From positions 9,064,501 through 9,128,500 of the forward strand of contig NC_091669.1 in NCBI RefSeq assembly GCF_042453785.1: a DNA stretch of 64,000 nucleotides, given 5' to 3'. Positions 8,731 to 31,579 of this stretch are shown piece by piece; the first letter of the stretch is position 1; each line of letters starts with the position of its first letter. The notes under the pieces are model-generated. The model had not been told where the DNA came from. It did not search any database and saw nothing but the letters and a program-made list of their open reading frames with translations. Source of the DNA: Malus domestica. Lineage: Eukaryota > Streptophyta > Magnoliopsida > Rosales > Rosaceae. Both the position numbers and the translations under genes were made by a program.

Positions 8731-9039
8731 GTTTCTAATCCCCAACTTAAACTTGTTACGTCTCATCTCGTGTTCTCGTGTTGGTTTGTGCCGTGCTAAG
8801 AATCTTGACAACCTAACAATGGTAGTTATAATGCTTTTATTGGAGCTAGTTAACCTTAGTGTTTGAAATTTTCTTTAAAGTGACAAGCAAGATGTTTGAT
8901 GAAATGACTTGTGAAGTTCATTATAGGAGCCTCTTTACACGCCCTCGTTATCACAAATGCATGCCTCCACCACCACAATTAAACAAGTTATATATGGTCT
9001 AGGGTTTACACTAATCTCGTATCGTGTAAAAAATTACCA

Positions 9040-9680
9040 CACAATCACGGTCCATTACAAATATCATCGATATTGTTTGAACTTAACCACCTATTACTAG
9101 GTGTTGAGTTTTATCACTAAATGTCTTGATAATATTAAGAGTGAAAACTCTCATATATTAGTCGTATATTATTTTGTCGTAACTAATGTTGAATCCTATT
9201 CTTCAACACGTCGGCCTCCTCATGAGCGGTCTCACACGAGGTCACAAGGGAAACCAATTCGCACATCTAGAACTGGTCAAGTCATTATATCGAAGCTGAC
9301 ACAACTTTTTGAGAGCTTAGTCATCATTTAGGGACTAGAGTCAATGCAACTTTTTGAAGGCCTAGTCATTTAATATCTTAAGCAGTTAAGCTGGAGCTAG
9401 CGCAACTTTTATAAAGCCAACTTAAGGAGGCAAATTCGAGCCCAATAAATCAGACTAGGAAGTGTCGAAAGAATAGCCTGCTTTAATACATGATAAACTT
9501 TTTAGGCTCAGCATGGTCCATCACCAATATCACTGATATTGTCCAAACTTAACCACCTATTAGTAGGTATTGGGTTTTATCATAAAAGGTCTTGATGATA
9601 TTAAAGGTGAAAACTCTCATATATTAATTGTATATTGCTTTGTCATATGACTGATATAAGATCTTATTCTCCAACAACTT
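9040..9680. repeat. Pair of direct repeats of about 170 bp (TRIM-like)
   Basis: A stretch containing 'ccacctattactaggtgttg' and 'gtgaaaactctcatatatta' near 9040-9206 recurs near 9508-9676. The same pair is present in the right duplication copy (27258-27441 and 27726-27911). Two terminal direct repeats around a short non-coding middle resemble a small non-autonomous LTR element. No primer-binding site was identified. Confidence 0.4.
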
Positions 9681-10131
9681 CACGCTTTACAATTACGAGT
9701 ACCAGCGCAACCATATACCATTCTATATCTTACAACAAAATCACAAAAAACACATCCAGGTCAGATTGCAACATGCATTACAAGTGGATTTTACCACATC
9801 CAGATCAGATTGCAATATGCACTACAATTGGAATTTATCGATCTGTCGGGTCCTTGCGGCTAGCTCAGATTAAAACCCTGAAACCAGTCATGTTTCAGTT
9901 TCAGCCAGTACCATCCTGATAAGGTTGCCCTAGACTGCCACTCAATTACTTGATGCTACAAAACATGAGCCATGCAAATAGCTAACAAGGCCAAAAAACA
10001 TCAAAGTCAGCCGCCATCCATATATATATATATGTATATTTACATATGTAATGCAGTAAATAACAAAGGTTGATCAAGTTGAGTGGAAGATATACAGATA
10101 GATATGATATAGTTGTTGTTGTGATCTCTTA

Positions 10132-10231
10132 TCAAAAGTGGGCCAAACTTTTTCTGCTTTCTGCATATAAAGCTTTCACATCCCTTTTGCCTCTGTGTTG
10201 TGTATTTCTGTAGTCCTGCACCACATGTTGC
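10132..10231 (-). pseudogene. Possible terminal exon relic of an unidentified gene
   Basis: On the minus strand an acceptor-like TTTTCCAG is followed by an open frame of 32 codons (QHVVQDYRN ... SRKSLAHF) ending in TGA at 10134-10132. The matching stretch in the right duplication copy (near 28290-28400) differs at three bases: two are silent and one turns CAG into TAG. I do not recognise the protein and see no upstream exons. It could be chance, but the silent changes hint at former coding. Confidence 0.25.
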
Positions 10232-12140
10232 CTGGAAAATAACACAAGTTAAAAAAAGCTAGAGATGATTAGTTGAACGCATGTGAAGAAACCATAATTT
10301 TTTAGTCCTTTCATCTTCTTTTTCTTTAATTATTATGGTATCCCAAACATTTCTACAAGAGCAGGCAAAAAGTTAAATGGTAGACTTGTTTTCCGGTTTT
10401 AAAACAGTACTTTAAGTTTATAGGTTGAGTGATTGAGTACACGTAAGTCTATGACGCTCAAATCTTCACTTTCTGATGATCAAAAGAAAACAAAATTATA
10501 TCTCCCTGAAACTATTTAAGTATTATGTAAGTTGATGATGGTGTTGTCATGTTGGTATAATTATTTATGTAATTGTGACATTAAGACTAATAAGTATGCT
10601 GTGCAGTTTAAATAATCATGATAGGCATGATTATCCTGATTATTTTAATTATTTTAATTATTTTAATGGGATTAATGGATTAGAACAAGCAAGTGCCAAA
10701 TAAAGCCAGAAGGGCATCGGCTTCGTTCAATTTAATTATGTTGGCTGATACCGACTAGGGTGTCGATATCACATACCTCAATCATATTAAGGGTACCATG
10801 TACTTATCATATTCTCTTTGATAAATTAACATATTAGCCAGTCCTAATCAGTATTATTCATAAGTCAAATATGTTGGCTATAAGCTTCACCAAATATATC
10901 CTATGTGAAGGGGTTTTCTGTGCATATTTTCAAGTCTCAAACTTAAAAGTTGGTGTAAAACACATCATCAACTTAATACCAGAAGAATGTTATGATTAAC
11001 CCACTCACTTATGTATCTTATTCCTAATTTTAATGATATTCTATTACAAAAAGGAAGGGGGATATTATACTCTAAGAGCAGCTCCAGTGGTGACCTAAAA
11101 GTATAGAGAATTGGGTTGCATTGCCTCCAACCTCCAAAACCCACGTCCAACGGCCCAAAAAAATGAAGGCCTATTGCTGGGCTCCACCAAGCTTATTGAG
11201 TTGCCTAGCCAACGCATGCAAGGCCTTGGGCCTGTTGGCAAGAAGCGATGTCATCATCACATCAAAGAGCAGACATAGGGCCCACCAAGTGTTTCACTAC
11301 AGAGCCCAATGGTTCTTTATAGCTGCCTTTCTCCGCTGTTGGATTTCCAACAGTTTTCACATCTTGATCGTTTGATTTCGAACGATATTTTTTTTTTTTT
11401 TGGAAATTATAGATTTGTGTCACGTGACACAATCTGACGCATTTGAATTAAAAAAAATAAAAAAATAGAAATCGACAATCAAGATTAATCCAAAGGTAAA
11501 ACAATCCAACAAAATACCAAAAAATTTCATTTTTTTTTAACAACACACTTAACAAACTTACAAAGATCAACCATTTCCTTCATTCGCCTTTCATTTTTTT
11601 AATTAATTATGCTTGTTTGTAATGCTATGCTTTGTATTTAAAATTAAATTATCAATGTTAAATTGGGAGTTTTATTTTCAAAGAAAAAAACTTGCTAAGT
11701 AGTAAGTATACACTTACAAGGCATAACAAAAAATATATATATATATATACATATATTTGTAAATAGTAGCCACCCTTGCCCTTGCCCTTCCTCTTCTCAA
11801 ACGGGTGGACTTGCCCAAACACAATTACTGTTCAGAGGAATTTTACTGCCCTTGCCCTTGCACTCCTAAAACGGGTGGACTTGCTCTAAAAAGATGGGGG
11901 TTGGGTTAGGCCGCACAACTTGATATCAAATTCAACATAAATACAATATGCACCGTTATTCATGTGAATCGAACTTGAGACCTTTTACTTACAAGTGAAG
12001 ATAATTATCAATAGACCATAATACTAGTTAGTTAATTCCAACTATTAAACCAACTTGTGTGCATATGTGACTGACCTCGACACTACTATAGTAGTGTTAA
12101 CTTTTTATACAATTAGTTAAACCAAACCCCATAAAGTTTA

Positions 12141-12296
12141 AGAAAAACTAATGAAAATGGCTTGAAAACTTTGAGTTTTAATGATAAGGACAAAATAAAG
12201 GGTAAAGTGAATAGTACCAGGATTGACTTTTTAGTGTAAAAATGTGGTTTTTCGTTAAAGTGAACAGTACCAGGTGCTTTTCGTTAAAGTTCCCGT
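12141..12296. mobile_element. 156-bp short interspersed element, absent from the other duplication copy
   Basis: The right copy reads straight through 'ccataaagtttatggtg'. The left copy has 156 bp inserted between two copies of 'aagttta' (12134-12140, 12297-12303). Inside, 'aaagtgaatagtaccagg' and 'aaagtgaacagtaccagg' form an internal repeat. A relative of the same family lies at about 53700-53880. It has no clear terminal inverted repeat, so SINE versus MITE is undecided. Confidence 0.7.
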
Positions 12297-13598
12297 AAGT
12301 TTATTGTGTTTTTACAAAACCTCTTCATGTTTAAGATATCACACTATGAACTTATGAGTTCATAATAATTTCTCATACATGTCTATAATAACTATAAAAA
12401 GTTGACAAAGCACCAACGATCAGAACCAGCTCATGCACACTTGTATAGAGTGGTTAACACTCATCTATCAGCTCATGCACACTTGTATAGAGTGGTTAAC
12501 ACTCATCTATTAGCACAACTATCTTAGTAGTAATTGCCTTTGGATTGCTCTTACTATTCACTCTATACAATAATTAACACTCTATACTCACTTTCCTTGT
12601 CCTTGTCCTCACCGTCGCCCTTGCCCTCGCCTGCATATGTCAACATTCATTATATCACTCGCCCTTAGTAGTTATAAATGTTCTACAATTGTAATTAGTA
12701 TTTTAAAATAAAAGAACAATATTTGAAATTACTAAAAACTCATTAGGCAACTTAATTAACAGAAAGTTCCCATTCAAACGGAAAAAAAAACCTCCCATGA
12801 ATTTCTCCATTTCTGAATCTAGATTAGATTCACAGGATCACTTTTTTTAGTTTTGTTTTTCACTCAAACAACAATATTTTGTGTATCCTCCTTTTGAATA
12901 GGTCGCACCCGATCAACAAAACTTTTTGTTACTATTTTACCCCTGCTCTTGTTTTACTACCCAACTAATTTTTCTTAGTTAATTTTAATCTCAAATTAAA
13001 AAACATATATCAAAACATATTGATATGCAGTCCAACATCTCGTTTTTCACACGTTACTATTTTACCCTTGCTCTTGTTTTACTACCCAACTAATTTTTCT
13101 TAGTTAATTTTAATCTCAAATTAAAAAACATATTGATATGCAGTCCAACATCTCGTTTTTCACACGATACTATTTCAGATTTCTATTATACGCTGCATGT
13201 TTTGGATTCAATTTTTGACACTTATGATTTATACCATAGTGATCATGAGAGGTTATCGACTCTCAAAATAATAGACTATCATGACGAAACCATTGGTTAA
13301 TCTACGTATAAGAAAAAAAAAAGTTTTCCCACTTGATGTTGTATCATTGCCGTAATAAATTGGATTATTGGAGTAATACAAATTGGCTTTTGTGCTGATT
13401 TTAATATTACAAGGTACAGTTACAAATTCATTACTTTTTGTAAAAAAAGTTTCTTCGAAAAGAAAATAAAAAAGGGAAAAAACTCAACCACTAATCACGG
13501 AGAAGTGAACTGGGTCTTTAAATAGGGAGGGACCCATGTATCGCCACATAGGATTTCTGCACATGATGACGCATGTCCCACATCAAGTTAGTAATTTA

Positions 13599-14651
13599 GG
13601 GTGCGTTTGTTGTGCCGGACTATCTTGGATTAGACTAGTTTCAAGGACTAAACTGGATTGGTTTAGACTAGACTAAGCTGGATTAACTTAGTGAAGCATT
13701 TGGTGCAATGTTGGACTAAGAAGCTAAATAATAACAAATTCTAATATTATATTATTTAATCTATAAATTATTAATATTTTATTATGATCTTATCTTTTTC
13801 TCCATCTTTTCCTACCATTTCCATCCCACACTCTCCCTCTTTTTTTCCTCCTAGACCTCTCGATTCCTGTCTCTCTCTCATTCCCGGTCTCTCAGTTCTT
13901 CGTCCCACCTTCTCCCTCTTTTTTTCCTCCCAGACCTCTCGATTCCTGTCTCTCTCTCATTCCCGGTCAAGCTCCTTATCGATTCCAGTCTCTATTTCTC
14001 TATCCTCCCTCCCTCTCTAGCTATGCGCTGTTCGAACAAAAACCTCATGGCTCCATTTTTCCCGACGAGTTGCAGGTTTCCCGACGTGTTTTCAGGCCAA
14101 CCCTAGTTGAATTGGATGAAGTTAGCACCGCCAAAAAATTCCTCACCATCCCTAGACCAAGATCTTAGCTTTGCATGCTCGAATCTGTCATGGATTCGAA
14201 GAAGCCCAAATAGGCCGAGACTTTCAGACCATTTTCCAGCCACATTCGACCACCTTTTGGCCTCGATTCAGGTAGAATCGTAATCTTGTCACTACCAGCT
14301 TTAATTTGGTATATTTTATATGAATCTGCTTTCGGTTTCTGGGTTTTTGGCTTTTTTGGGTTTTCTGGGTCTCTGACTTGGAGATCTTATGGACAGATGA
14401 TAGGGAGGTGGGGAGAAAGACAGTGGGAGGGCAAGTTCTCAAGCGTGGGGTGAGGCAAAGTGAGGGGAAGCGGGGAAACGGGACTAGCAATCCCCTCCTT
14501 TTCGGGGGCTCTCGCTAAGCCCAGCTAACGAAGGATTTAGTCGGCACGAGTCCGCCTTTATCCCACTAAACTCAATCACGGCTTGCACCAAACATGGGTT
14601 ATTAGTCTTAGCCAGTCCAGTCCTAGCTAAGGAGGTCAAATAAACGAGGCA
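13599..14651. mobile_element. PIF/Harbinger-like non-autonomous DNA element
   Basis: The right duplication copy shows the empty site ('gtaatctaaagtgc'). In the left copy 1053 bp are inserted between TTA (13596-13598, target base C changed to T) and CTA (14652-14654), which fits a 3-bp target duplication. The ends (left GGGTGCGTTTGTTGT, right end reverse-complementing to TGCCTCGTTTATTT) are imperfect inverted repeats of Harbinger style. It encodes no transposase I can recognise; the open frame at 13784-14020 is low-complexity Ser/Pro. Confidence 0.65.
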
Positions 14652-14745
14652 CTAAAGTGCACTCAGTCCTGCGGTTACGATTTCACTATTTATCCACAAA
14701 CACCAACGCCTGGAGAAAAACAAACTGTAACTAGCTGCCACATGG

Positions 14746-14751
14746 CACGTG
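14746..14751. promoter_or_regulatory. G-box core CACGTG in the left duplication copy
   Basis: The palindromic CACGTG is kept in both duplication copies. The right copy reads gccacgtggc at 31413-31422, upstream of the CCCH zinc-finger gene. Here it is cut off from that gene by about 17 kb of inserted DNA. Confidence 0.35.
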
Positions 14752-14823
14752 GCGAGCATGCATATAGAGATTAGATTTTCGCACCCCAAACACCAACGGC
14801 GAGATTAAATCTAGACCGCTGAT

Positions 14824-14858
14824 AGCACTTCACCTCACAGAAGTCCAGCGTTTATTGT
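14824..14858 (+). repeat. 35-bp copy of the viral RT region at the viral/host junction
   Basis: These 35 bases are identical to 16691-16725 inside the reverse transcriptase, yet here they abut host duplication sequence on the left and the coat-protein zinc-knuckle region on the right. This marks a rearranged viral end. Confidence 0.95.
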
Positions 14859-15447
14859 GAAAAAGTGGAACGAGAAAAGAGACTTCAAAAGACCAATCAG
14901 ATGTTTCAAGTGTGGAAAAGAAGGACATCTAAGTAGCGGATGTGACAATAGAGCCGCTTCAGGATATAGATGTGATATTTTTAGTCAAACTAAAATTGAC
15001 TTAATGGATATTAAAACTGCTGAAGATTTAGAGGATGATCCCTCTATATACTCGATAGTATCAGAAGAATTCGTTGATTTGAGTAAGATTGATCCAGAAT
15101 ATGAACCCGATGACAGTAACGATGAAGCAGACTCAAGATTAATATCGGAAATGACACCAGACACTGCTCTAATGAATACCGACCATATGGATATTCAACA
15201 AATGAAAGTACTCATAAGACCAGATACAGATATACCATTAGACACTAGACTTTTAAAATATCCTTGTAGACATGAATGGAAAATAGGACCAGGAGACATT
15301 AATAATGTGTGCAAAGCATGCATGATATCAGTACAACTGAAAGAAAGAGCAAAATGTTTTAAATGTGGGACAGAAGCATGCATGCTGCATAGTATGTATA
15401 GAAACTTTATTCGAAATCACATTACGAGAAGAAGGCCCAAAAACTGA
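14857..15447 (+). pseudogene. Caulimovirid coat-protein-like fragment with CCHC zinc knuckle
   Basis: The frame contains CFKCGKEGHLSSGC, a CX2CX4HX4C zinc knuckle as in caulimovirid coat proteins, followed by an acidic stretch and a second Cys/His-rich stretch near the end (CRHEW, CKAC, CFKCG). The N-terminal bulk of a coat protein is missing. The reading frame is entered directly from the 35-bp RT-derived piece. A frameshift near 15440 moves the likely continuation into another frame, where a lysine/glutamate-rich helical stretch runs to a stop at 15569-15571. Confidence 0.7.
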
Positions 15448-15742
15448 AAGGACGTACGATACAATACTGGAACAGAGGTTGCATGATATGGATAAAAAAT
15501 GGACATTAACCCAGACAGTAATCCAAACCTTAAAAGAATGGAAAGAGACTTACAAGAATTTGCGGGAATAGAAACCGTCGGGATTAAAAGATAAAGAATA
15601 CGAAGCTCGTTTATTAGAATTCCAAAAGGAGATTCAAGCTAGACAGAATAAAGGAGTATCATTGAATATGAGTTCATTAGAGTCACCATTAAGTTGTAAC
15701 AACCCAAATACGCTATCAGCACCTCAAGTTAAATAAAAAATT

Positions 15743-17125
15743 TTGGTCGATGGACAATGGGAAATAAGTGTGATGGGATTAGTAGATACTGGAGCTACCA
15801 GTTGTGTATTTGATATGTCTCTAGTACCAGAAAAATACAGGAAAAGGGCAAAATATCCAGTACAAAGTCAAGGAATCGATGGGAACTTTTTTACATATGA
15901 ATACTTACTTAAACCTTCCACTGTAAGATTCTTCACAGGAAATTGTGGATGGAGTGAACCGTATGGATTGCCAATACACAACGTTTGGCTTAGAGATCTT
16001 AGAAGCATAGGACTACCAACCCACTTTATTATCGGAACCCAGTTTATCTTCCGTCATGGAGGAGGAATGACTGTAACAAAAGACTATGCCTTATTCCATA
16101 AATACACGACATCAGCTTTACTAGAAGCCAAATTTGATACCAATAGTTCAGCGGAATTACTACCAACCAAACTTGCAGAAGAACTTGAAAAACTACGACT
16201 AACATCAGAGTTGCGAGAGAAGCATGGTGGAACCCTTAAGAAACAATACCACAAAACTCAAAAAACCAAATTACTAAAGGATTGTAAATGCGAAGTGAAA
16301 GGAAGTTGTATGAAACAACAAAAACCAGACACGGTATATTTTGACACAATTGGATGTATACCTAAATTAGTAGAACTAGAATCGCCAGAATGGACTACCG
16401 AGATAAAAATTAAACCAGACGCATGGTTTATACCAAGAGCCTTATGTTACTCAGCTACTCTAGATCCAGATGATTTTGAAATTTCAAGTATTATAAAGAA
16501 TTTGGAAAACCAGCACTTGTTATCAGATGATCTGAAAGAATATGTTCATGACAAATCAGTGATATGTAAATTAGAGATAAAGAATCCTAACTACTTGATT
16601 TCCGGAGGAAAGATAGAATTCACTAACATAGACATACAAGACATGGATCAACACTTGAAAGAGCTACTTGACTTAAAATTTATATCAGAAAGCACTTCAC
16701 CTCACAGAAGTCCAGCGTTTATTGTAAGAAATACTGCGGAAGAACGAAGAGGAAGGTCCAGAATGGTAATTAATTACAAAAGATTGAATGACAATACCGA
16801 AAGAGATGCTTATGATTTACCAGATAAATCCATGTTAATAAACTCGATTCAACATTCTGAAATTTTTAGTAAATTTGACTGTAAATCAGCTTATTGGCAA
16901 ATTCAAATGCATCCAGAAAGCAAATCATGGACAGCCTTTACCTGCCCTTCAGGATTATATGAATGGAATGTAATGCCATTTGGTCTCAAAAATGCACCAT
17001 CAGTTTACCAAAGAAAAATGGACCAGATATTTAAACGTCTGAAAAAGTTTTGTTTAGTTTGTATAGATGATATTCTAATTCACAGTAAATCCAGAAGGGA
17101 ACATTATTCTCCAAGAAGAAGATAG
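15743..17125 (+). pseudogene. Caulimovirid protease and reverse transcriptase, disrupted
   Basis: A retroviral-type aspartic protease is marked by DTGATS near the start. The RT domain follows, with NYKRLN, FDCKSAYWQIQM, MPFGLKNAPSVYQ and the catalytic box CIDDIL near residue 440. A stop (TAA) lies shortly before 15743 in the same frame. After the catalytic box the frame is lost through what looks like an internal deletion ending near 17104. Plant pararetroviruses use this polyprotein to replicate through RNA; this copy is non-functional as read. Confidence 0.85.
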
Positions 17126-17129
17126 AATT

Positions 17130-17875
17130 ATACAAACCCAGGATAAGTTTCTTAGGATCGGAAATAGGCAAAGGAACTATCACCCTACAACCTCATATTA
17201 CCAAAAAGATATTGGAATTCCCAAATAAGATTGAAGATACAAAGAAACTACAAAGCTTTTTAGGACTAGTAAATTACGCCAGAATTTACATTAAAAATTT
17301 ATCTCAATTACTTGGACCCTTATGGGCTAAGTTATCTAAAAATGGACAAAAACACTTTAATAAACAAGATGAACAACGGTACAGGAAATTAAAGAAAGAT
17401 GTAAAAATCTGCCAGAGCTTTATCTGCCACTTGACTCAGATTACTTAACCGTTCAGACAGATGGATGTGAAGGTGGATGGGGAGCAGAACTAATTGCTAA
17501 ACCCACTAAGATAAGTCATAAGAAAAATGAAAGAATTGCCAGATATGGATCAGGTAAATTTGCAGAAACCGACAAGTTATCTTCGGTAGATGCGGAGATA
17601 TTAGCTATTGTATACGCACTCGATAACTTTAGGCTTTATACTTTAGGAAAAGAAGAAATCACGATAAGAACAGACTGTATAGCAATTGTAAAAGCATATC
17701 ACTCTTTACAGGATGCTAAGCGAACGGGAAAAAGAAGATGGGTTAACTTCTACACTAAGTTAATTGAAGCAGGACCACGCTCGATCAAATTCGAACATGT
17801 GAAAGGCTATAAATACAGACCAAAATTCTTCATTCAAACTCACCAAGCAATCAAACCATATCTTTACTCTTAAAC
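17130..17875 (+). pseudogene. Caulimovirid RT connection and RNase H region, frameshifted
   Basis: After a frame change the plus strand reads the RT thumb/connection (ISFLGSEIGKG, KLQSFLGLVNYAR). A second frameshift near 17415 leads to an RNase H domain with the DGCEGGWGAEL start, the AEILAIVYAL helix and an RTDC segment. The frame ends with TAA near 17873. The order agrees with a caulimovirid polyprotein end. Confidence 0.75.
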
Positions 17876-17889
17876 CATCAACAATCTTT

Positions 17890-18217
17890 ATGAGCATTAT
17901 TCAGTCTTTTCTACTCCTTGCAATTTTTATTTTATCACTTGAACTTCTATACCAGAAAAACCAGTAAAAATATCCAAGCATCTGAAGATCTTAACCTGAA
18001 ATACTACCAAGCCCTTGAAGATATCGAAACCCTTCAAACAGAAATCTCAAGGCTCAGATACCAGAATCGCAGAAGAGCTGCAATCGGAAAGTATATGATA
18101 TGACAGGTAAAAGAAAGAGATCGTGCACAGAAGAAATAATTACCAGAAGAATCATACAAGAAGAAGATAATTACAACAGATACCAGGAATACCAGATTCA
18201 GCAAAATACAAGAAGTA
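17890..18217 (+). other. Viral downstream sequence with short coiled-coil frame
   Basis: An open frame at 17918-18103 has a heptad-like stretch (YYQALEDIETLQTEISRLR). It follows the RNase H and is cut by the hAT-like insertion. It may be a remnant of a small viral downstream ORF; I cannot name it. Confidence 0.4.
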
Positions 18218-18225
18218 GACCCAAC

Positions 18226-20019
18226 TAGGGGTGGGCAAACGGGTACAGGAACCGCGGGTAGGGGCGGGTAATTCAGGTTCGGGGCGGGTCCAATATTTCT
18301 AAACACAAAACGGGGCGGGGCGGTTCGGGTATATGAAATTATCGGGGCGGGGCGGGTCTTAAAATAGAAGGGAACGGGCCCCCGGCCCGGCCCGTTTCTT
18401 TTCCTCATCCCTAGTCTTCTCGATCTCTATTCCCCGACACTTTACATTTCACTCATACCCGGCCCATTTCTTTTCCTCATCAGTCATCCTTAGGCTTCTC
18501 GATCTTTCTTTTCCTCATCAGTCATCCCATACCTCGAGACCTCCTCCTAACTCGCTCCCAGCCTCCCACCGTCCCAGCTCCATACCCCGCCACCATCATC
18601 GTCAGACCTCCATCTCTCCTAATTTGCTCCTCTCTTCCTCGCTGCGTCCGCCGCCATGTCTCTCTCTCTCTCTGTGACGAACTCAAAGGGACGGACGAAG
18701 TTGAACAACTCGAAACGACGCCTCCTCCGTCTGAATTAGACCCATATTTGCAGCGCACGACTCTGCTCATAGTCCTCTTCAGTTTTAAGGTATTACGTTT
18801 TAGGGATTTAGGATTGAAAATTAAATTAGGGTTTTCTAGATCTAGGGGTTTTGTTGGGTTCTTGAATGGCTGCTCACTTGACACCACATTCCTCACAATT
18901 CTACTTGTGATTGTTATTAATGTGAATTTCTGCTTGTAATTTTGAATTAGGGTTTCAGGGATTTTAGGGATTTTGAATTTGGGTTTTAGGGATTTTAGGG
19001 CATTTCATCCAAATTTACTTTCAAATATATCATCTCATTTCATCCAAATTTTCAAATTTGACTGCAGAAGATAGGGAAGGTTTTGCAGTCATCCCGTGGC
19101 TGGTATTGATGATGCCTTCACTTCATCTCGTGGCTCCACCAAGACCCTTTTATTGATACAAAATTGTGTTCAATTATTTATTTCATCTTGTTTGCATTGA
19201 TTGATATATATATCGTTGTGCTAATTTGAAATGTTTGACAAACTGTTTATTCATACCGTTGACAGAGCTCTTTACTCTGAGAATTAGGCTTGTTGTAGTG
19301 TGTTGGCTCATGTATGATCACACTGTTTATATCCCTAAAATTGTACTTGTGAAGATTTGCAACCTCTGAGAATTAGGCTTGTTGCAGTGTGTTGTAGCAA
19401 GCTATTTGTATTGTTTAAAATGTGGATTGCTTTGTTTTTAAAAGTTGAAATCTTTGTTGAAACCCTTCCTGCAATACTTTTAGTTGAAGTGATACATTAT
19501 CTTTGATATATTGTATTGGGATATGATGAGATGTTTTCTATAGTCTTCTACTTTGGAACCCAACTGATGTAAGTACTAGTCTTCCTCTTTTTAGCATATA
19601 GTTTATTTCTCTTGTTTTCAGTTGGTTTCATATCATATTTAAACCTTAAAAATAAGAATGATTCAACATATATCAATAGAATAGGGATGGATTTAGTTGT
19701 TGGTTTTATTCGTGATCTGATGTGAATCTGTGCAGGTGAATTTGTGCAAAATCTGCACACTGCATGCAGTGTCACTGTGATTGTGCAGTTGCAAATTGCA
19801 ATCTGAGCAGTTTGCAATCTGTGCTGTTAAAAAAAAAAAAAAAAAAAAAAGGGTACCCGTGGACCCGACCTGAATAGGCCCGTTTCAACCGGGCCGGGTA
19901 ATGTGCGGTTCCTATACTAGAAAATCCAATCCCCGCCCCGTCCCGGCCCGTTTCGTTTAAGCTCCGGTTCCTACAAACTTAGGTTCGGCCCGGCCCGCCC
20001 CGGCCCGTGCCCAGCCCTA
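18226..20019. mobile_element. hAT-like non-autonomous element 1 (1794 bp)
   Basis: The ends are TAGGGGTGGGCA and, reverse-complemented, TAGGGCTGGGCA, typical hAT termini. It is bordered by an exact 8-bp target duplication, gacccaac (18218-18225 and 20020-20027). Next to the ends are GC-rich subterminal repeats (cggggcgggg on the left, cggcccgccccggcccg on the right). The middle has a TC-rich leader-like stretch and an A run (about 19829-19850), but no transposase. The open frame at 18522-18896 on the minus strand is low-complexity. Confidence 0.88.
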
Positions 20020-20027
20020 GACCCAAC

Positions 20028-20520: not shown

Positions 20521-20598
20521 TGGTATCAGAGTAGGTTCTTTTGTAACCTGTCTCTGCCATTCTTGCTGCTGCGAATTTTTTCTTTCAAAGTCTAAGTC

Positions 20599-21705: not shown

Positions 21706-21964
21706 GATAATTGATTCAGGCGCCACATATCATATGACAAACAAAGTTACAAATTTACATCATTTAAAAAAAATTTCAAGTCCCTCGCATGTGTCTATTG
21801 CAAATGGAAAAAATGTCTTAGTTTTGGGAAAAGGAGAAATAAACTTACTCTCTCAAAAAATACCTTCAACTGCCCTCTATGTACCAACCTTTCCTTTCCA
21901 ACTTTTATGAATTGGAAAGATCACCAACACTCTAAACTGCCATGCTATTTTCTCACCAAATAAT

Positions 21965-22495
21965 GTGATGTTTCAGGATGTTCTCACCATGAAGATGATT
22001 GGTGAAGGGGTCTTCATAAATGGACTTTACTACCTGTGCAAGAATGCCTGTTTCACTCAAGCTCTTCAAGCCAAATCGAAGTCCATAGATGAAAACCAAC
22101 TTTGGCATAGGAGATTAGCTCACCCCTCTGAAGTTGTCTTGTCTAAACTGTTTCCAAATTTTTGTAACCCTTATCCTACTTGTGATACTTGTCAATTTTC
22201 TAAGTTTACTAGGCTACCTTTTGGTAATTCAATGTCTAGGACAAGTAAACCTTTTGAAATGGTACACACCGATGTATGGGGACCTGTAACTGAATCAATG
22301 GAAGGGTTTAAGTACTTTGTTCTATTTGTTGATGATTTCTCTCGATCAAGTTTTCTATATCTTATGAAATCAAAGAGTGAAGTCCCAACCATTTTCAAAG
22401 ATTTTCACATGCATGTTAAAAAACAATTTCAATCAAACATTAAGGTTTTAAGGTCAGATAATGGCACTGAATTTCTATCCAACAACATGCTTTAA
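21965..22495 (+). pseudogene. Copia 1 GAG-pre-integrase and integrase, truncated by stop
   Basis: LWHRRLAHPSEVVLSKL with the CDTCQFSKF pair is the zinc-binding region of integrase. HTDVWGP and RSDNGTEF hold the first two catalytic aspartates. The frame stops at 22493-22495; the catalytic glutamate region (PQENRVAERKNR) follows in the same frame after the stop, and the next open stretch runs 22586-23515. Confidence 0.85.
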
Positions 22496-22585
22496 TACAT
22501 AAGTTCTCAGGGTATCATACATCAAACCAGCTGTGTAGGGACTCCTCAAGAAAATAGAGTAGCCGAGAGGAAAAATAGAGATCTC

Positions 22586-24041
22586 TTGGATAAGACTCAT
22601 GCTCTCATGATCCATATGCATGTTCCAAAGAAATTTTGGTCATTTGCCATACTTACTGCCACTTATCTCATCAATCGACTTCCAAGTCGTGTGCTAGGGT
22701 TTAAATCTCTTTATGAAGTTCTCAAGGGGAGGAAAATAGATTTGACACACTTCAAGGTGTTTGGTTGTGTTTGTTTTGTTCACATCCAAACCTTGAACTG
22801 TGACAAACTAGATGCTAGGGCAACCAAGTGTGTGTTTATGGGATACTCGGCCACCCAAAAGGGATACAAGTGTTTCAATCCAGTCACTAAGAAGTGCACA
22901 GTTTCAAGAGATATGAAGTTTAAAGAAGATTGTCCCTATTTTACAAGTCAGGAGGAGGATTTAGTTGACATGTTCCCACTCCCTCAAAACTTTAATCATC
23001 CGATGTTGGAAGAAAGATCAGTCACTGTGAGTCCAGATTGTGAAGAGGTACAAACTGACCAAATTATTGCCAGTGAGAGTGAAGAAGAGCCCTACTCTAA
23101 TCATTCTCAGTCCACTACAGAGTCTCAGGTGATTAAGAGAAACCCTCCTCGAATCAGAAAACCTCCAGCTAGGTTGCAAGACTATGTTACATATGCCTCA
23201 CGGCATCCTATCACTGAATGTATCAGCTTTAGTAAGTTCTCAACATGTCATGCTGCATTTCTTAGTGAAATTGATAAACACTGTGAACCAAGAAGCTTTC
23301 AAGAAGCTTCTCTTCTCCCACAATGGAAACAAGCCATGACAGAAGAGCTTCGTGCACTGGAAGAGAATCACACATGGAGTCTAGTTCAATTACCACTAGA
23401 AAAAAGGCTGTTGGAAGTTGTTGGATCTACAAGACAAAATTCAAAGCTGATAGATCTATTGAGAGACACAAGGCTAGACTTGTTGCTCGAGGTTTCACAC
23501 AAACCTTTAGAGTAGATTATAAGGAAACATTTGCACCGGTGGCCAAGATGAACTTAGTCAGGGTTTTACTTTCAGTTGCAATCAATTGTGGGTGGTCACT
23601 CTACCAAATGGACGTGAAGAATGCTTTCCTTCACGGAGAGTTGCAGGAAGAATTGTATATGCAGCCTCCTCCAGGCTATGATGGTATCAAAGGTAGCATG
23701 GTTTGCAAATTGCACAAGGCAATATACGGATTGAAACAATCACCAAGAGCTTGGTATGCCAAGCTTAGTTCTAGTCTGAAAAAGGCTAGATTCGTGCTAA
23801 GTAATGCTGATTCTTCGTTACTTGTAGCACCAGTGGGAAGTTGGTGGTCTTCATCTACGTTGATGATCTTATCATCATTGGAGATAGTACCGTGGAAATT
23901 GAAGCACTAAAACTCTCACTACATCAAACTTTTGCTATCAAAGATTTGGGAAGGTTAAAGTATTTATTGGGGATCGAAATGGCAACATCTTCAAAAAGAC
24001 TGTTTCTACATCAACGGAAATATGTATTGGACCTTCTTTAA
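22586..24041 (+). pseudogene. Copia 1 integrase C-terminus and reverse transcriptase, frameshifted
   Basis: The first frame (22586-23515) covers the integrase end and the linker to WKQAMTEELRALEENHTW. A frameshift near 23410 moves the RT into another frame (RLVARGFTQ, YQMDVKNAFLHGEL, IYGLKQSPRAWY). Another near 23840 brings in the catalytic YVDD within IYVDDLIIIGDS. The element cannot produce an intact RT as it stands. Confidence 0.85.
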
Positions 24042-24129
24042 GAAGCAAAAATGCTTGACTGCAAGCCTGCTATCACTCTCGTTGATTGTAAACTGAACCT
24101 CAGCATAGATGGAGAAACCATGCATGATG

Positions 24130-24810
24130 TAACCTACTATCAATGATTAGTAGACAAACTCATAAACCTCACAATCACTCGTCTAGATATCACTTATGCT
24201 GAGAGCTTGGCTAGTCAGTTTATGCACTCTCCCATTGTTGATCACCTTAACATTGTTAAGAGAATCATTCGTTATCTCAAAGGTTCAATAGGGCAAGGAA
24301 TTACAATGCACAACAATCAATCTACTGTCATTAGTGGCTACACAGATGCAGACTGGGCAGGTAATGCAATTGATAGGAAATCAACCACAAGCTATTGTAC
24401 ATTTGTTGGTGGAAACCTTGTCATATGGAAGAGCAAGAAGCAACATGTAATTGCTCGTTCCAGCGCAGAGGCTGAGTATCGAGCCATGGCAGCCACTGCT
24501 TGTGAACTCATTTGGCTTAAAGGGCTTCTTTCAGACTTAGGGTTTTCTAGTTCTACTCATATGTCACTTATGTGTGATAATTAGGTAGCCATGCATATTG
24601 CTGCCAACCCTGTGTTCCATGAAAGAACCAAACATATTGAAGTGGATTGTCATTTCATCAGAGCTCAAGTTCAAACTTAAATCATCCGGACCATGTTCAC
24701 ACAAAGCCATGATCAATTGGCAGATCTCTTTACAAAGGCATTGGCATCCACTCAGTTCCATCGATTATTAGGCAAGCTTGGCTCAGTTGACCTCCTCGAT
24801 CCAGCTTGAG
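24130..24810 (+). pseudogene. Copia 1 RNase H region
   Basis: Contains YTDADWAGNAIDRKST and the WKSKKQHVIARSSAEAEYRA core typical of Copia RNase H. It is followed by [17 protein letters not shown] and QLADLFTKAL. Stops at 24582-24584 and near 24680 interrupt it. It ends just before the polypurine tract. Confidence 0.85.
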
Positions 24811-24816
24811 GGGGAG

Positions 24817-25163
24817 TGTTGAAGTGTTGAAGTGTATTTTGGCCTCTAGAGTCAGCTACCATGTTCTCTTGGGATAGCTCTAGGCACTAGAGTAATTAGT
24901 CTTCTTTCCTTGATTTAAGGGATGTGGTTGATTGGTGAGCTACCATGTTCTCTAGGGATAACTCTAGGCACTAGAGTAATTAGTCTTCTTTCCTTGATTT
25001 AAGGGATGTGATTGATTGGTGCAAGTTGTTTTTTGTAAGGTGTAGATTAGGCTAGCATTAGGCTAGCTTCTCTTTCTTCCCCCTCTTTCTTCTCATATAT
25101 ATCTAGACCCCTTGTACATTAAACTCATGAAATACATTACAAATTAAAGCCATAATTTCTATA
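24817..25163 (+). repeat. Copia 1 3' LTR
   Basis: Follows the polypurine tract and ends tttctata before the target duplication accta. Compared with the 5' LTR it starts with an extra 8 bp (tgttgaag repeated) and has several substitutions plus a short duplication near 25050-25060 (gctagcattaggctagc). Confidence 0.9.
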
Positions 25164-25168
25164 ACCTA

Positions 25169-25306
25169 CCAGACAACAAAGAGCCAGATTTCCTCAAACC
25201 CAAACCAGAATTCCTCTATCTACCCAAAGTATCAGCAACCCAACCAGACTTGCACCACAAACACCCGAAGTCTAAGCTGCAGCAGTTAGGCAGTCTTCAC
25301 CAGAAG
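25169..25306 (+). mobile_element. Pararetrovirus segment 3
   Basis: Viral sequence between Copia 1 and hAT-like element 2. Its right end, accagaag (25299-25306), is the target duplication of that hAT element. It is proline/glutamine-rich if read on the plus strand. Confidence 0.65.
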
Positions 25307-26999
25307 TAGGGGTGGGTTCAAATAACCGAAAACCGAAAAAAACCGAAAACCAAACCGAACCGAGGCCGAAAAAAACCGAACCGAAAAAAAACCGAACCGA
25401 AACTGCCAAACCGAACCGAACCGAATCTGGCTGGTTCGGTTTCGGTTTTTGAGGTCTAGAAACCGAACCGGACCGAACCGAACCGAAAAAAAAATATATA
25501 TATAAATACCAAAAAATATGTTAGCTGATGGGTTCGAACCCCTGACCTGTAGGTTGGGTTTAGGTGCTGTCAGCCAACTTGACTGTAGGCTTTCTATTGT
25601 TATAATTGTACCAGTATATTATTTATAGGTTTATTATATTGAATGCTTTATAAAATTTCTTAAGCTTAAAACCCTAGCCGTCTCAGTGTCCCATTCCCAT
25701 TTCATTTTCAGATCTCAAAGTCTCTCTCTTCCCGTCGCGGCTTCCTCTCTGCTTCCTCAGTCTCTCTCTCTCCCTCTCCTTCCTCTCTTCCTCCAAATCA
25801 CTCTCTCTAGTCTTCTCTTGTCCTCCTCGTGGATTCTTTCTTCCAAACAATGATTTTCCCTCGCCCCTTTTCGAGACCCGACGAAAAGAGGAATTGTAAG
25901 AGCTTGCGACGATCACTGCAGCAAAGGTTGTGGGTAATTTCGTTTCTGAACACTATTAGACTATTAGTTGAGATTTGATTAATTTGTGAGAAATTTTGGT
26001 TATGCACCGCAATTTGTTTTGGGTATGTTGGGGAGTGTCTGTCGATTGTGTTTTTTCAGTGTTGCTTGTAATCTGATTCCATTTTTGTTTTTGGGTTTAG
26101 GGATTTTGAGATTGTTTATTGATTGGAGAAGATGGCGTTGGGAAAGAAGTGCAAGAGTTGCTTGAAAGCGAAGCGTGGCAGCGGCGGTGCTGTTGCGGCG
26201 GAGGCGGAGCCGATGATGGAGTTAGGGTTTGTGAAGTACACGCGAGCTTTGGGGAGGAAGAGGATTGGGATTTCTAACAATGGCGAGGAGGCATCGCCGG
26301 CTGATTTGTATCCCAATACTCCATTGAAGAAGCAGCGGAGTGGGAAGATGATTTGGGAATCGAAAACTGCCGCCTCCTCCGCCCTAGAAGCTCTGCCTCA
26401 GGAGATTCTGGTTAGCCCCAAATTCTCAATTTTTTGCGATTGAACAATCAAATATAAAATTGGTTTCGATTTAATTCGTTTCTAATCACATTTCTCTTTC
26501 TGTGCATTGCAGATTAAGGTTGTGTGTGGAGTCGATCACGATGATTTGAAGCGGCTTTTCCGTGTATCGAAAGCGATTAGAGAAGCGGTAAGTTTAATTT
26601 GTTCAATTAACTTCAATAATTAATTTTTAATTTGTTTTTATCAATTGGCATTGATTTTGATGTTTCATATTGTTTGATTGCAGACTCTGGTTGCGAAGCA
26701 GTGGCATTTTGCTTCTTAGTCAATGATGTATCTTACCTCATGAATATTGAAAAACCGTCCTGGAGAGATGGAAACATGTCATATTTTCTATTTCTATCTT
26801 ATGTTGTGGTTGTTTTGCATTTTTTGGAGGGACAAAAAAAAAAAAAAAACCGAAAAAAAACTGAAACCGAACCGGAAAAACCGAACCGAAAAAAAAACCG
26901 AACCGAAAAAAAATTGGGCCGAACCGAACCGAACCGAAAATTCGGTTTGGTTTCGGTTTTGGCAAAAAACTGAACCGATAAGAACCGAACCCAGCCCTA
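25307..26999 (+). mobile_element. hAT-like non-autonomous element 2 (1693 bp) carrying a captured F-box gene fragment
   Basis: The termini taggggtgggttc and gaacccagcccta are a 13-bp inverted repeat with one mismatch. An exact 8-bp target duplication accagaag lies at 25299-25306 and 27000-27007. Many 'accgaaccgaa' subterminal repeats sit inside both ends in opposite orientation. The middle (about 25640-26730) is unlike the ends: it holds a leader-like TC-rich stretch and three F-box exons. No transposase is present. Confidence 0.92.
26132..26719 (+). pseudogene. Transposon-captured F-box gene fragment (FBS1-like), splice sites intact
   Basis: Three exons with canonical borders can be read: 26132-26410 (ATG GCG TTG; 93 codons), 26513-26587 (25 codons) and 26684-26719 (11 codons and TAG), 129 residues in one frame. 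The start MALGKKCKSCLK and the F-box (ALPQEIL then IKVVCGVDHDDLKRLF) resemble plant F-box stress-induced 1 (FBS1, At1g61340-type) proteins, which dock to SKP1 in SCF ubiquitin ligases. Family members, as I recall, are longer; here the frame stops right after KQWHFAS. It lies wholly inside the hAT-like element, so it is best read as a transduplicated fragment. Whether it is transcribed is unknown. Confidence 0.75.
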
Positions 27000-27007
27000 A
27001 CCAGAAG

Positions 27008-27025
27008 CCCAAGGAGATGAATGGC
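27008..27025 (+). other. Last viral bases before the right duplication copy
   Basis: A short stretch between the hAT element's second target duplication and the point where similarity to the left duplication copy starts (27026). By position it belongs to the pararetrovirus piece; it is too short to prove. Confidence 0.4.
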
Positions 27026-30000
27026 AGAATCTTGACAACCTAACAATAGTAGAGTTATAATGCTTTTATTGGAGCTAGCTAACCATACTGTTTGAAATTT
27101 TCTTTAAAGTAACAAGCAAGATGTTTGATGAAATGATCCGTGAAGTTCGTTATAGGAGCCTCTTCACACGCCCTCGTTATCACAAATTCATGCCTCCACC
27201 ACCACAACTAAGCAAGTTATATATGGTCTAGGGTTTACATTAAACCCTGAACACTTTTGACAAACCTTTTAGGCCCATCACGGTCCATCACAAATATTGT
27301 CAATATTGTCTCAACCAAACCACCTATTACTAGGTGTTGGGTTTTATCACAAAAAGTTTCGATGATATTAAGGGTGAAAACTCTCATATATTACTCGTAT
27401 ATTATTTTGTCATGATCAATGTTGGATCCTATTCTCCAACATGCCGGCCTCCTCATAAGCAGCCTCACACAAGGTCACAAGGGAAACCAATTCGCACATC
27501 TGGAACTGGTCAAGTCATTATACCGAAGCTAACACAATTTTTTGAGAGCCTAGACATCATTAAGGGACTAAAGCCAATGCAACTTTTTGAAGGCCTAGTC
27601 ATTTAATATCCTTAAGTAGTTAAGCTAGAGCTAGCGCAACTTTTCGAAAGCCAACTTAAGGAGGCAAATTCGAACCCAGTAAATCAGGCTAAGAAGTGTC
27701 AAAAGAATAACCTCCTTTGATACATGATAAATTTTTTAGGCCCATCATGGTCCACCACCAATATCACTAATATTGTCCAAACTTAACCACCTATTAGTAG
27801 GTATTAGGTTTTATCATAAAATGTCTCGATGATATTAGGGGTGAAAACTCTCATATATTAATTGTATATTATTTTGTCATATGACCGATATAAGATCTTA
27901 TTCTCCAACAACTTCACACTTACAATTACGAGTACCAGCGCAACCATATACCATTATATACCTTACAACAAAATCACAAAAAACACATCCAGGTCAGATT
28001 GCAACATGCATTACAATTGGATTTTATCGATCTGTCGGGTCCTTGCAGCTAGCTCAGATTGAAACCCTGAAACCAGTCATGTTTCAGTTTCAGCCAGTAC
28101 CATCCTGATAAGGTTGCCCTAGACTGCCACTCAATTACTTGATGCTACAAAACATGATCCATGCAAATAGCTAACAAGGCCAAAAAACATCAAAGTCAGC
28201 CACTATATATATATGTAATACAGTAAATAATTCAAAGGTTGATCAAGTTGAGTGGAAGATATACAGATAGATATGATATAGTTGTTGTTGTGATCTGATC
28301 AAAAGTGGGCCAAACTTTTTCTACTTTCTGCATATAATGCTTTCACATCCCTTTTGCCTCTGTGTTGTGTATTTCTGTAGTCCTACACCACATGTTGCCT
28401 GGAAAATAACACAAGGGAAATAAAACCAGAGATGATTAGTTGAACGCATGTGAAGAAACCATAATTTTTGTGTCCTTTTCATCTTCTATTTCTTTAATCA
28501 TTATGGTATCCCAAACATTTCTACAAGAGCAGGCGAAAAGTTAAATGGTAGACTTGTTTTCCGGTTTTAAAACAGTACATTAAGTTTATAGGTTGAGTTA
28601 TTGAGTACACGCCTCAAGTCTATAACGCTCAAATCTTCACTTTCTGATGATCAAAGGAAAACAAAATTATATCTCCCTGAAACTATTTAAGTATTGTGTA
28701 AGTTGATGATGGTTATGTCATGTTGGTATAATTATTTATGTAATTGTGACATTAAGACTAATAAGTACGCTGTGCCGTTTAAATATTCATGATAAGCATG
28801 ATTATTTTGATTATTTTAATTACTTTAATGGGATTAATGGATTAGAACAAGCAAGTGCCATATAAAGCCAGAAGAGCATCGGCTTCATTCAATTTAATTA
28901 CGTTGGCTGATACCGACTAGGGTGTCGATATCACATACCTCAATCATATTAAGGGTACCATGTACTTATCATATTCTCTTTGATAAATTAACATATTAGC
29001 TAGTCCTAATCTGTATTATTCATTAGTCAAATGTGTTGGCTATAAGCTTCACCAAATATATCCTATGTGAAGTGGTTTTCTGTGCAAATTTTTAAGTCTC
29101 AAACTTAAAGGATTGGTGTAAAACACATCGTCAACTTAATACCAGAAGAATGTTACGATCAACCCACTCACTTATGTGTCTTATTATTCCTAATTTTAAT
29201 GATATTCTATTATAAAAAGGAAGGGGGATATTTTACTTTGAGAGCAGCTTCAATGGTGACCTAAAAGCTCAGAGAATTGGGTTGCTTTGCCTCCAACCTC
29301 CAAAACCCACGTCCAACGGCCCAAAAAATGAAGGGCTATTGCTGGGCTCCACCAAGCTTACGGAGCTGCCCAACCATCTCATGTTAAGCCTTGGGCTTGT
29401 TGGCAAGAAGTGACATCATCATGACATCAAAGAGCAAACATGGGGCCCACCATGTGTTTCTCCGCTGTTGGATTTCCAACAGTTTTCACATCTTGATTGT
29501 TTGATTTCGAACGATAATCTTTTTTTCTTGGAAATTATAGATTTGTGTCACCTAACACAATCTAGCCCATCTGAATTAAAAAAAAAATAGAAATCGACAA
29601 TCATGATTAATCTAAAGGTAAAACAATCCAACAAAATACCAAAAAATTTCATTTTTTTAACAACACACTTAACAAACTTACAAAGATCAACCATTTTCTT
29701 CATTCGCCTTTCATTTTTAATTACTTATGTTTGTTTGTAATGCTATGCTTTGTATTTAAAATTAAATTATCAAAGTTAAATTGAGAGTTTTATTTTCAAA
29801 GAAAAAACTTACTAAGTAGTAAGTATAAACTTACAAGGCATAACAAAAAAAAAATATATATATATATATATACACACACATATATTTGTAAGTAGTAGTC
29901 ACCTTTGCCCTTGCTCTTCTCAAATGGGTGGACTTGCCCAAACACAATTACTGTTCAGAGCAATTTTACCGCCCTTGCACTCCTAAAATGGGTGGACTTG

Positions 30001-31492
30001 CTCTAAGAAGATGGGGGTTGGGTTAGGCCACACAACTTGATATCAAATTCAACATAAATACAATATGCACCGTTATTCTTGTGAATCGAACTTGAGACAT
30101 TTTACTTACAAATGAAGATAATTATCAATAGACCATAATACTAGCTAGTTAGTTAATTCTAACTATTAAATCAACTTGTGCGCATATGTGACTGACCTCG
30201 ACACTACTATAGTAGTGTTAACTTTTTATACAATTAGTTAAACCAAACCCCATAAAGTTTATGGTGTTTTTACAAAACCTCTTCATGTTTAAGAAATCAC
30301 ACTATCAACTCATGAGTTCAGAATAATTTCTCAAACATGTCTATAATAACTATAAAAAGTTGACAAAGCACCAACGATCAGAATCAGCTCATGCACACTT
30401 GTATAGAGTGGTTAACACTCATCGATTAGCATAACTGTCTTAGTAGCAATTGCCTTTGGATTGCTCTTACTATTCACTCTATATAGTGATTAACACTCTA
30501 TACTCACTTTCCTTGTCCTTGTCCTCACCCTCGCCCTCGCCTGCATATGTCAACACTCATTATATCACTCGCCCTTAGTAGTTATGAATGTTCTACAATT
30601 GTAATTAGTATTTTAAAATAAAAGAACAATAATTGAAATTACTAAAAGCTCATTAGGCGACTTAATTAACAGAAAGTTCCCATTCAAACGGAAAAAAAAT
30701 AACCTCCCATGAATTTCTCCATTTCTGAATCTAGATTAGATTCACAAGATCACTTTTTTTTGTTTTGTTTTTCACTCAAACAACAATATTTTGTGTATCC
30801 TCCTTTTGAACAGGTCGTACCCGATCAACAAAACTTTATGTTACTATTTTACCCCTGTTCTTTGTTTTACTATCCAACTAATTTTTCTTTGTTAATTTTA
30901 ATCTCAAATAAAAAAACATATTGATATGCAATTCAACATCTCTTATTTCACACGACACTATTTCAGATTTCTATTCTATGCTACATGTTTTGGATTCAAT
31001 TTTAGCACTTATGAATTACACGATAGTTATTAGAAGAAGTTATCAACTTTCAAAATAATGAATTATCATGACGAAATCACTGGTTAAATTGCATTATTGG
31101 AGTAATACAAATTGGCTTTTGTGCTGATTTTAATATTACAAAGTACAGTTACAAATTCATTACTTTTTGTAAAAAAAGTTTCTTCAAAAAGAAAATAAAA
31201 AAGGGAAAAAACCCAACCACCAATCACGGAGAGGTGAACTGGGTCTTTAAATAGGGACCCACGTATCGCCACATAGGATTTCTGCACATGATGACGCAGG
31301 TCCCACATCAAGTTAGTAATCTAAAGTGCACTCAGTCCTGCGGTTACGATTTCACTATTTATCCACAAACACCAACGCCTGGAGAAAAACAAACTGTAAC
31401 TAGCTGCCACATGCCACGTGGCGAGCATGCATACGGAGATTAGATTTTCGCACCCCAAACTCCAACGCCGAGATGAAATCTAGACCGCTGAT
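27026..31492. repeat. Right copy of the large direct segmental duplication
   Basis: Matches 8799-14823 along its length, without the PIF/Harbinger-like element, the 156-bp element or the 42- and 125-bp tandem duplications. It runs without interruption into the unique promoter region of the CCCH zinc-finger gene at 31493, so this is the copy in the ancestral position relative to that gene. It includes the TRIM-like repeat pair (27258-27441, 27726-27911) and an AT/CA microsatellite near 29853-29885. No intact gene is seen. Confidence 0.93.
31413..31422. promoter_or_regulatory. G-box palindrome gccacgtggc
   Basis: A perfect ACGT-core palindrome in the duplicated segment upstream of the CCCH zinc-finger gene. 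Such motifs are bound by plant bZIP and bHLH factors; activity here is inferred only. Confidence 0.4.
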
Positions 31493-31579
31493 TGTCCACA
31501 AGGTGGGGCCCATTTCTACTTGCATGTCAGCCACCTACTCTGGCGACAGGACAAGAAGACAAAACAGAACGTACGGGGT

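What the first reader, a model, noticed from the sequence alone, without database searches (positions are those of the whole stretch)
8799..31492. Pararetrovirus DNA sits exactly at the junction of a large direct duplication
Seen: one segment occurs twice in direct orientation (8799-14823, 27026-31492), and the similarity ends at 14823 and starts again at 27026. Everything between is viral DNA plus later transposons whose target duplications can be removed cleanly. Known: caulimovirids have no integrase and enter genomes through break repair. Inference: a staggered or double break was repaired with duplication of the host segment and capture of viral DNA as filler, so one event made both. The duplicated DNA is the upstream region of the CCCH gene.
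Basis: partly seen in the sequence, partly recalled or inferred. Interest (0 to 1): 0.85.

Follow-up and report, generated by a model that had tools for sequence, protein, structure and literature searches.

The report
Viral DNA trapped at duplication seam
In an apple chromosome, a decayed piece of an ancient plant virus sits between two copies of a duplicated host segment, most simply because one DNA-repair accident copied the host DNA and trapped the virus; a second, much younger insertion nearby has the same layout.

Summary
A 4.5-kb intergenic host segment (A) occurs twice (8799-14823; 27026-31492; 281 differences in 4,439 aligned sites). Between the copies lie 3.7 kb of caulimovirid or unassigned DNA and three later transposons with 8-, 5- and 8-bp target duplications. 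The homeologous locus on contig C17 has the order VPS11-L-A-R-CCCH, no detected virus, and not this duplication, though it has a different one of its own. L-A-R is therefore ancestral. New: the first 35 viral bases at the A1 edge exactly copy reverse-transcriptase DNA 1.9 kb further in, i.e. templated or rearranged viral filler; no strict microhomology there. New: a young copia element in the same window (46397-53776) is flanked by 339-bp host duplications (99.7% alike); the part of that segment matched on C17 occurs there once. Capture of reverse-transcribed DNA during duplication-forming break repair is the best explanation. A two-step history (duplication, later insertion with a deletion across the seam) is not excluded. 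The layout equals 'Z-pattern' integration of Merkel cell polyomavirus (PMC7470373, passages). Ten paper searches listed no plant caulimovirid case that I recognised.

The parts
8799..14823 (+). Host segment A, copy 1 (A1); its left edge is ancestral
   Evidence: A1 and about 25 bp of L next to it align continuously with C17, A2's left neighbour does not
27026..31492 (+). Host segment A, copy 2 (A2), 4,467 bp; continuous with R towards the CCCH gene
   Evidence: A2 and R align with one C17 stretch apart from about 120 bp absent from C17 that span the edge
14824..14858 (+). 35-bp viral filler at the A1/virus seam
   Evidence: Exact copy of 16691-16725, E 9e-15 in the window; the only other genome match of the 624-base query
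16691..16725 (+). Donor of the filler, inside the reverse transcriptase frame
14859..17873 (+). Caulimovirid core: zinc knuckle, A3B protease, reverse transcriptase, RNase H; frames broken
   Evidence: Pfam; tblastn; homologues
17874..18225 (+). Continuation of the insert, not assigned
   Evidence: no homology search of its own except against C17 (none)
18226..20019 (.). hAT-like transposon, 8-bp target duplication GACCCAAC
20028..20192 (+). Insert piece, not assigned (probably viral)
   Evidence: Position between recognised transposon footprints
20193..25163 (+). Copia LTR retrotransposon, 5-bp target duplication ACCTA; LTR differences 15 of 327
25169..25306 (+). Insert piece, not assigned (probably viral)
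25307..26999 (.). hAT-like transposon, 8-bp target duplication ACCAGAAG
27008..27025 (+). Last 18 bp of the insert before A2, not assigned
12141..12296 (.). MITE-like insert in A1 only (empty site in A2)
13596..14651 (.). TIR-type repeat insert in A1 only (empty site in A2); its right part has many genome matches
46397..46735 (+). Second case: host segment X, left copy, 339 bp
53438..53776 (+). Second case: host segment X, right copy, 1 difference in 339
   Evidence: 125 bp of X match C17 once, between matches to L and R
46734..53436 (-). Copia element between the X copies (LTRs 46734-46991 and 53180-53436; 1 substitution in 257, last base of the right LTR changed or lost), no 5-bp target duplication found

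Best explanation
A chromosome break between A and R was repaired by a process that joined viral DNA to the broken A end and, from the other viral end, joined or copied again from the left edge of A through to R. The result is L-A-virus-A-R in one event. Shown: the topology, the ancestral L-A-R order, the sharp edges, the viral filler at the A1 seam, the later transposons. Inferred: that duplication and capture were simultaneous, and the route (break-induced copying as in Z-pattern virus integration, or joining of two breaks on sister chromatids with viral DNA between them). The first viral bases at the seam were copied from, or broken off, another part of the same kind of viral DNA.
For: Viral DNA begins at the very base after A1 ends, and only 18 unassigned bases, after a transposon footprint, precede A2. 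The homeolog has L-A-R without virus and without these breakpoints. A 35-bp viral patch lies exactly at the host/virus join. Ages are compatible: the copia inside the insert has LTR divergence 0.046 (95% CI 0.026-0.075) against 0.053 (0.046-0.061) for A from 9700 on and 0.063 for all of A, so by point estimates the insert was there for most of the life of the duplication, though the interval is wide. The insert carries 3 later transposons in 3.7 kb against 2 in 8.9 kb of A (p 0.16), so it does not look younger by this measure. A second insertion in the window, a copia element, has the same layout with 1 difference in 339 (host copies) and 1 in 257 (LTRs), so duplication and insertion are close in time there, and the matched part of X is single on C17.
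Against: No strict microhomology at the A1 edge. Viral frames are slightly less decayed than A predicts: 1 stop against 3.2-3.7 expected (p 0.12-0.18), 2-3 frameshifts against about 6-7 (p 0.03-0.18), 0 of 35 differences in the filler (p 0.09-0.20); none decisive, all leaning towards a younger insert. Duplications without this virus are found nearby (60 kb downstream; C17). The tail pieces of the insert are not proven viral. No orthologue and no reads could be examined.
Confidence: 0.66

Rival explanations
1. Two steps, duplication first: a slightly larger segment (x-A-y) was duplicated in tandem; later viral DNA was captured at a break whose repair deleted y and x across the seam, which leaves the present edges.
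For: No exact coincidence is needed: a 1-kb deletion has about an 11% chance of spanning the seam, 100 bp about 1%. Decay counts lean to a younger insert. Duplications are frequent locally.
Against: Needs an extra event and a chance placement. Copia LTR divergence inside the insert leaves little time between the steps by point estimates, though the intervals are wide. The second case (X-copia-X) would need the same coincidence again.
Confidence: 0.24
2. Two steps, virus first: virus next to a single A, then an unequal exchange duplicated A, followed by loss of the outer virus copy.
For: Tandem arrays of endogenous caulimovirids are reported (PMC10377300, section 12 read).
Against: Predicts virus DNA at 8798 or 31493; none is seen there, the A1 left edge is continuous with the homeolog, and the capsid-region piece has no other full match in the genome.
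Confidence: 0.04
3. Assembly artefact: two haplotypes laid end to end.
For: No reads could be inspected.
Against: A1 and A2 differ at 6% of sites and by two transposons; in 1,909 columns shared with C17 both copies carry private changes (30 and 41).
Confidence: 0.04
4. A1 and A2 are long terminal repeats of one giant retrotransposon.
For: Direct repeats flank gag-pol-like genes.
Against: No TG...CA ends and no 4-6-bp target duplication found; A exists as single-locus host DNA in synteny at the homeolog; the protease is of caulimovirid A3B type and no integrase was detected.
Confidence: 0.02

Closest known systems
Z-pattern integration of Merkel cell polyomavirus (PMC7470373; abstract start and passages seen)
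   Same: Virus without integrase (recalled); viral DNA flanked by direct duplications of host DNA; partial viral genomes occur; the authors propose microhomology-mediated end joining and break-induced replication for this pattern.
   Different: There: human tumours and cell lines, junctions more than 17 kb apart in most cases (one sample with 6 bp), microhomology enriched on the viral side. Here: germline fossil in apple, 4.5 kb, no strict microhomology at the testable edge, a 35-bp viral filler.
Endogenous florendoviruses and other endogenous caulimovirids (PMC4241990, PMC10377300; passages and one section read)
   Same: Order zinc finger - protease - RT - RNase H, fragmentary, proposed capture as filler during break repair; florendoviruses are reported in Malus.
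   Different: (TA)n association not seen here (longest (TA)n within 1 kb of each of the four edges is 6 bases); the passages report short stretches gained or lost on insertion, not a kilobase host duplication. Genus not determined.
Tandem-duplicating insertions in rice, patch-mediated break repair (Vaughn and Bennetzen 2014; seen only as summarised in PMC7407515)
   Same: Insertions with tandem duplication, ascribed to offset nicks followed by end joining.
   Different: Described there for insertions of 10-1000 bp; fits X (339 bp) in scale, not A (4.5 kb); foreign reverse-transcribed DNA between the copies is not part of that summary.

Membership tests
Caulimoviridae (endogenous) | Zinc knuckle - A3B-type protease - RT - RNase H in this order | tested here: met
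   Pfam zf-CCHC, Peptidase_A3B, RVT_1, RT_RNaseH; the best homologue carries the last three, and the listed hits include named badnavirus proteins (P0051, P0055)
Caulimoviridae (endogenous) | No integrase | tested here: inconclusive
   Pfam found none in the ORFs scanned (18415-18936 lies in a transposon), but short ORFs after RNase H were only read by eye and the insert is partial
Florendovirus | ORF1 MP-CP-AP-RT-RH polyprotein plus florendovirus-specific ORF2 | tested here: inconclusive
   Domain order fits; no MP found in the insert; no named florendovirus sequence was available; RT tree places it with unnamed P0002 and P0012 (90/88, long branch)
Z-pattern (MMBIR-type) virus integration | Viral DNA flanked by direct host duplication derived from a single-copy site | tested here: met
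Z-pattern (MMBIR-type) virus integration | Microhomology on the viral side of the junctions (a statistical trend in the source paper) | tested here: not met
   0 bp at the A1 edge, where the donor is known; the other edge is not testable
Z-pattern (MMBIR-type) virus integration | Duplication and insertion in one event | tested here: inconclusive
   Ages compatible, order not resolved
LTR retrotransposon (A as LTRs) | TG...CA ends and 4-6-bp target duplication | tested here: not met

The most novel reading that the evidence does not exclude
Apple germline chromosomes capture free reverse-transcribed DNA, both pararetrovirus DNA and LTR-retrotransposon cDNA, without integrase, during break repair that re-copies the flanking host DNA (339 bp to 4.5 kb). 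The two cases in one 64-kb window would be an old and a young example of one recurrent route that inserts retroelement DNA and duplicates host regulatory DNA together.
Probability: 0.3. Interest if true: 0.72.

Novelty: new variant of a known kind. Interest (0 to 1): 0.52.

Why it matters
How caulimovirids enter plant chromosomes is argued largely from flanking (TA)n repeats and rearranged copies; the 2023 review says the mechanism remains speculative (PMC10377300, section 12). A fossil that keeps the host-side scar (duplicated target, single-copy homeolog, viral filler at the join) makes break-repair models testable. If one event made both, virus capture is also a source of host tandem duplication. 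The young copia case offers the same test on near-identical copies. A functional effect on the CCCH gene is not shown: A1 and A2 gained private changes at similar rates (30 vs 41, p 0.24).

Tried and rejected
Rejected: A as LTRs. Gene content of A: no stop-to-stop ORF of 150 aa or more lies inside A1 or A2; ORFs of 60 aa or more were listed for A2 only (8, some crossing an edge) and not searched. Rfam: 0 matches at gathering score in 64 kb. Fragile-site structure: four 141-base stretches at break sites, folded as single-stranded DNA, show nothing unusual (z -0.74, 1.39, -0.07, -0.38). Viral relatives in IMG/VR: one scan with an RT piece; 8 stretches matched a pattern, none confirmed. Capsid-region ORF against the protein database: 1 hit among 69 candidates, 13% of the query covered, so the viral side of 14859 cannot be placed. 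RT placement: tree of 62 rows (the window and 61 of the 120 listed of 303 hits, those that passed a length cut), long branch, no named florendovirus in it. A first alignment of whole A1 with A2 misplaced the A1 insert and overstated divergence (K 0.085); replaced. Base-rate survey of direct repeats (120 bp or more, 85% or more, 1-30 kb apart) in 124 kb of C9 and 41 kb of C17: a cluster of large tandem duplications outside the window, no further clear LTR pair; one C17 pair in leucine-rich-repeat gene DNA shows a 4-bp flank match, taken as chance; too small for a rate (the last 18 kb of C17 were fetched later). In one search two short stretches of A were aligned to two C17 places each, so some columns count twice.

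Literature: ten searches, listings with abstract starts only, unless a paper is cited as read in passages; one search listed nothing. Passages of PMC8346255 and PMC1899175 were also looked at. I recognised no report of a plant caulimovirid flanked by a kilobase host duplication; most subscription papers are not held.
Full report
What is there. The window lies on contig C9 of a 651-Mb, 19-contig genome. Its VPS11 exon is 100% identical over 96% of the query to a Malus domestica protein, so apple is the likely host. Between VPS11 (start near 7154, minus strand) and a CCCH-type gene with the AtC3H46 PABC domain (stop-to-stop ORF 33529-34473) one intergenic segment, A, occurs twice in direct orientation: A1 8799-14823 and A2 27026-31492. 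Edges are sharp. With two A1-only inserts set aside, 281 of 4,439 sites differ; the excess of differences sits mainly in the first 900 sites and in two short stretches further on; A has internal repeats in parts of these.

The insert. From 14824 to 27025 I find viral or unassigned DNA (3,723 bp in all) and three later transposons. Viral homology is shown for 14859-17873: zinc knuckle, A3B-type protease, reverse transcriptase, RNase H. The frames are broken: homology moves through frames 2, 1 and 3, with one in-frame stop; the capsid frame is frame 1, so a third shift before the protease is possible but could be a natural ORF border. The pieces 17874-18225, 20028-20192, 25169-25306 and 27008-27025 adjoin viral DNA once the transposon footprints are recognised, but nothing assigns them independently. 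The transposons have target duplications GACCCAAC, ACCTA and ACCAGAAG. The capsid-region piece has no second full match in the genome (the tool warns that its first look can miss sequence). For the RT-RNase H piece 40 of 241 candidates were scored; the 39 matches other than itself are distant (70-72%); the five whose DNA I compared (L035-L039) are closest to P0008, i.e. another caulimovirid-like family.

A filler at the seam. The first 35 insert bases (14824-14858) are identical to 16691-16725 in the RT frame. In the genome the 624-base capsid-region query finds only itself and this place. A ends GAT, the donor is preceded by GAA, so there is no strict microhomology there. Short patches copied from nearby templates at joins are a recognised mark of end joining (established knowledge; not tested here). 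A break in a rearranged or concatemeric viral molecule would look the same.

Ancestral state. A2 used as query found the homeologous locus on C17. I read C17:9900001-9941000. It is syntenic with VPS11, L, A, R and the CCCH gene. At the L/A edge, about 25 bp of L next to 8799 and A itself align continuously with C17, whereas A2's left neighbour does not; window 8116-8791 has no match on C17. A2 and R align with one C17 stretch, apart from about 120 bp (31416-31536 in this alignment) absent from C17 that span the edge, so the exact A/R base cannot be checked there. Six viral or insert pieces gave no match on C17, and eight caulimovirid-like proteins gave one insignificant match (E 0.15). So L-A-R with no virus is ancestral, and C9 is derived. 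Against a simple reading: C17 has its own duplication of an inner part of A (about window 10648-12748) around 5.9 kb of unidentified DNA with inverted repeats, and a 14.6-kb insert inside one of its copies. This is a different event, and shows that duplication around inserts also happens here without caulimovirid DNA.

Age. In 1,909 columns shared with C17 (some counted twice), A1 and A2 differ at 4.2%, and each differs from C17 at 15.5-16.0%; the duplication is much younger than the split of the homeologs. At 1.3e-8 per site and year (a rate quoted in PMC5659011, passage) K 0.055 gives about 2 million years; scaling by a Maleae genome duplication of 30-50 million years (recalled) gives about 8-13. 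I keep the wide range.

One event or two. For one event: viral DNA starts at the base after A1, a filler lies at that join, and a copia element inside the insert has LTR divergence (0.046, CI 0.026-0.075) close to that of A (0.053 from 9700 on; 0.063 overall), so by point estimates the insert is nearly as old as the duplication. The insert has 3 later transposons in 3.7 kb against 2 in 8.9 kb of A (p 0.16). Against: stops, frameshifts and filler identity all lean to a younger insert, none decisive (the frameshift expectation uses indels of non-coding A and may be too high). The main rival is a tandem duplication followed by virus capture with a deletion across the seam; it needs no exact coincidence, and I give it 0.24.

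A second case. At 46397-53776 a minus-strand copia element with LTRs 46734-46991 and 53180-53436 is flanked by 339-bp direct repeats X (1 difference); no 5-bp target duplication was found. The LTR limits follow from TG...CA ends and the polypurine-like tract after the left LTR (read by eye), so X is not part of the LTR. The right X runs on through a MITE-like stretch that the element interrupts on the left. On C17, 125 bp of X match once between matches to L and R, with no element matched there (18 kb read). Here X and LTR divergence are both near zero, so duplication and insertion are close in time. This is an independent example of the same topology, and I weigh it as support for the mechanism; with two cases in one window I cannot say how common it is.

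Mechanism. Both routes considered (viral end priming copying from the left edge of A, i.e. break-induced replication; or two breaks on sister chromatids joined through viral DNA) give L-A-V-A-R. The polyomavirus Z-pattern is the closest described analogue (passages of PMC7470373). I favour the copying route slightly, by analogy; nothing here separates them.

Verdict. Observation confirmed and sharpened; interpretation partly supported; a new variant of a known kind.

Noticed in passing
46397-53776: Young copia element flanked by 339-bp host duplications instead of a 5-bp target duplication; the matched part of X is single at the C17 homeolog. Used as the second case.
   Followed up: yes
L020-L022 (C17:9909055-9931619): The homeologous intergenic region has its own duplication of an inner part of A around 5.9 kb of unidentified DNA with inverted repeats (9925196-9926650), plus a 14.6-kb insert with leucine-rich-repeat gene fragments.
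   Followed up: partly
L024-L029 (C9:9132887-9185942): Cluster of large direct duplications (up to 3.2 kb, 98% alike) just downstream of the window.
   Followed up: no
25307-26999 and 18226-20019: Two hAT-like elements with similar ends (TAGGGGTGGG / CCCAGCCCTA) sit at separate places in the insert; the first-named holds a gene-like stretch (about 26130-26720, read by eye).
   Followed up: no
74-2149: Nested tandem repeats with units of about 65, 217 and 914 bp.
   Followed up: no
56364-57016: About eight tandem copies of a 79-bp unit.
   Followed up: no
L035-L039: A different, dispersed caulimovirid-like family in the same genome: 39 other RT matches at 70-72% among the 40 scored of 241 candidates; the five compared are closest to P0008.
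   Followed up: partly
31416-31536: About 120 bp that span the A/R break edge are absent from the C17 homeolog, so the same spot changed in both homeologs or on one side only; no unusual folding found.
   Followed up: partly
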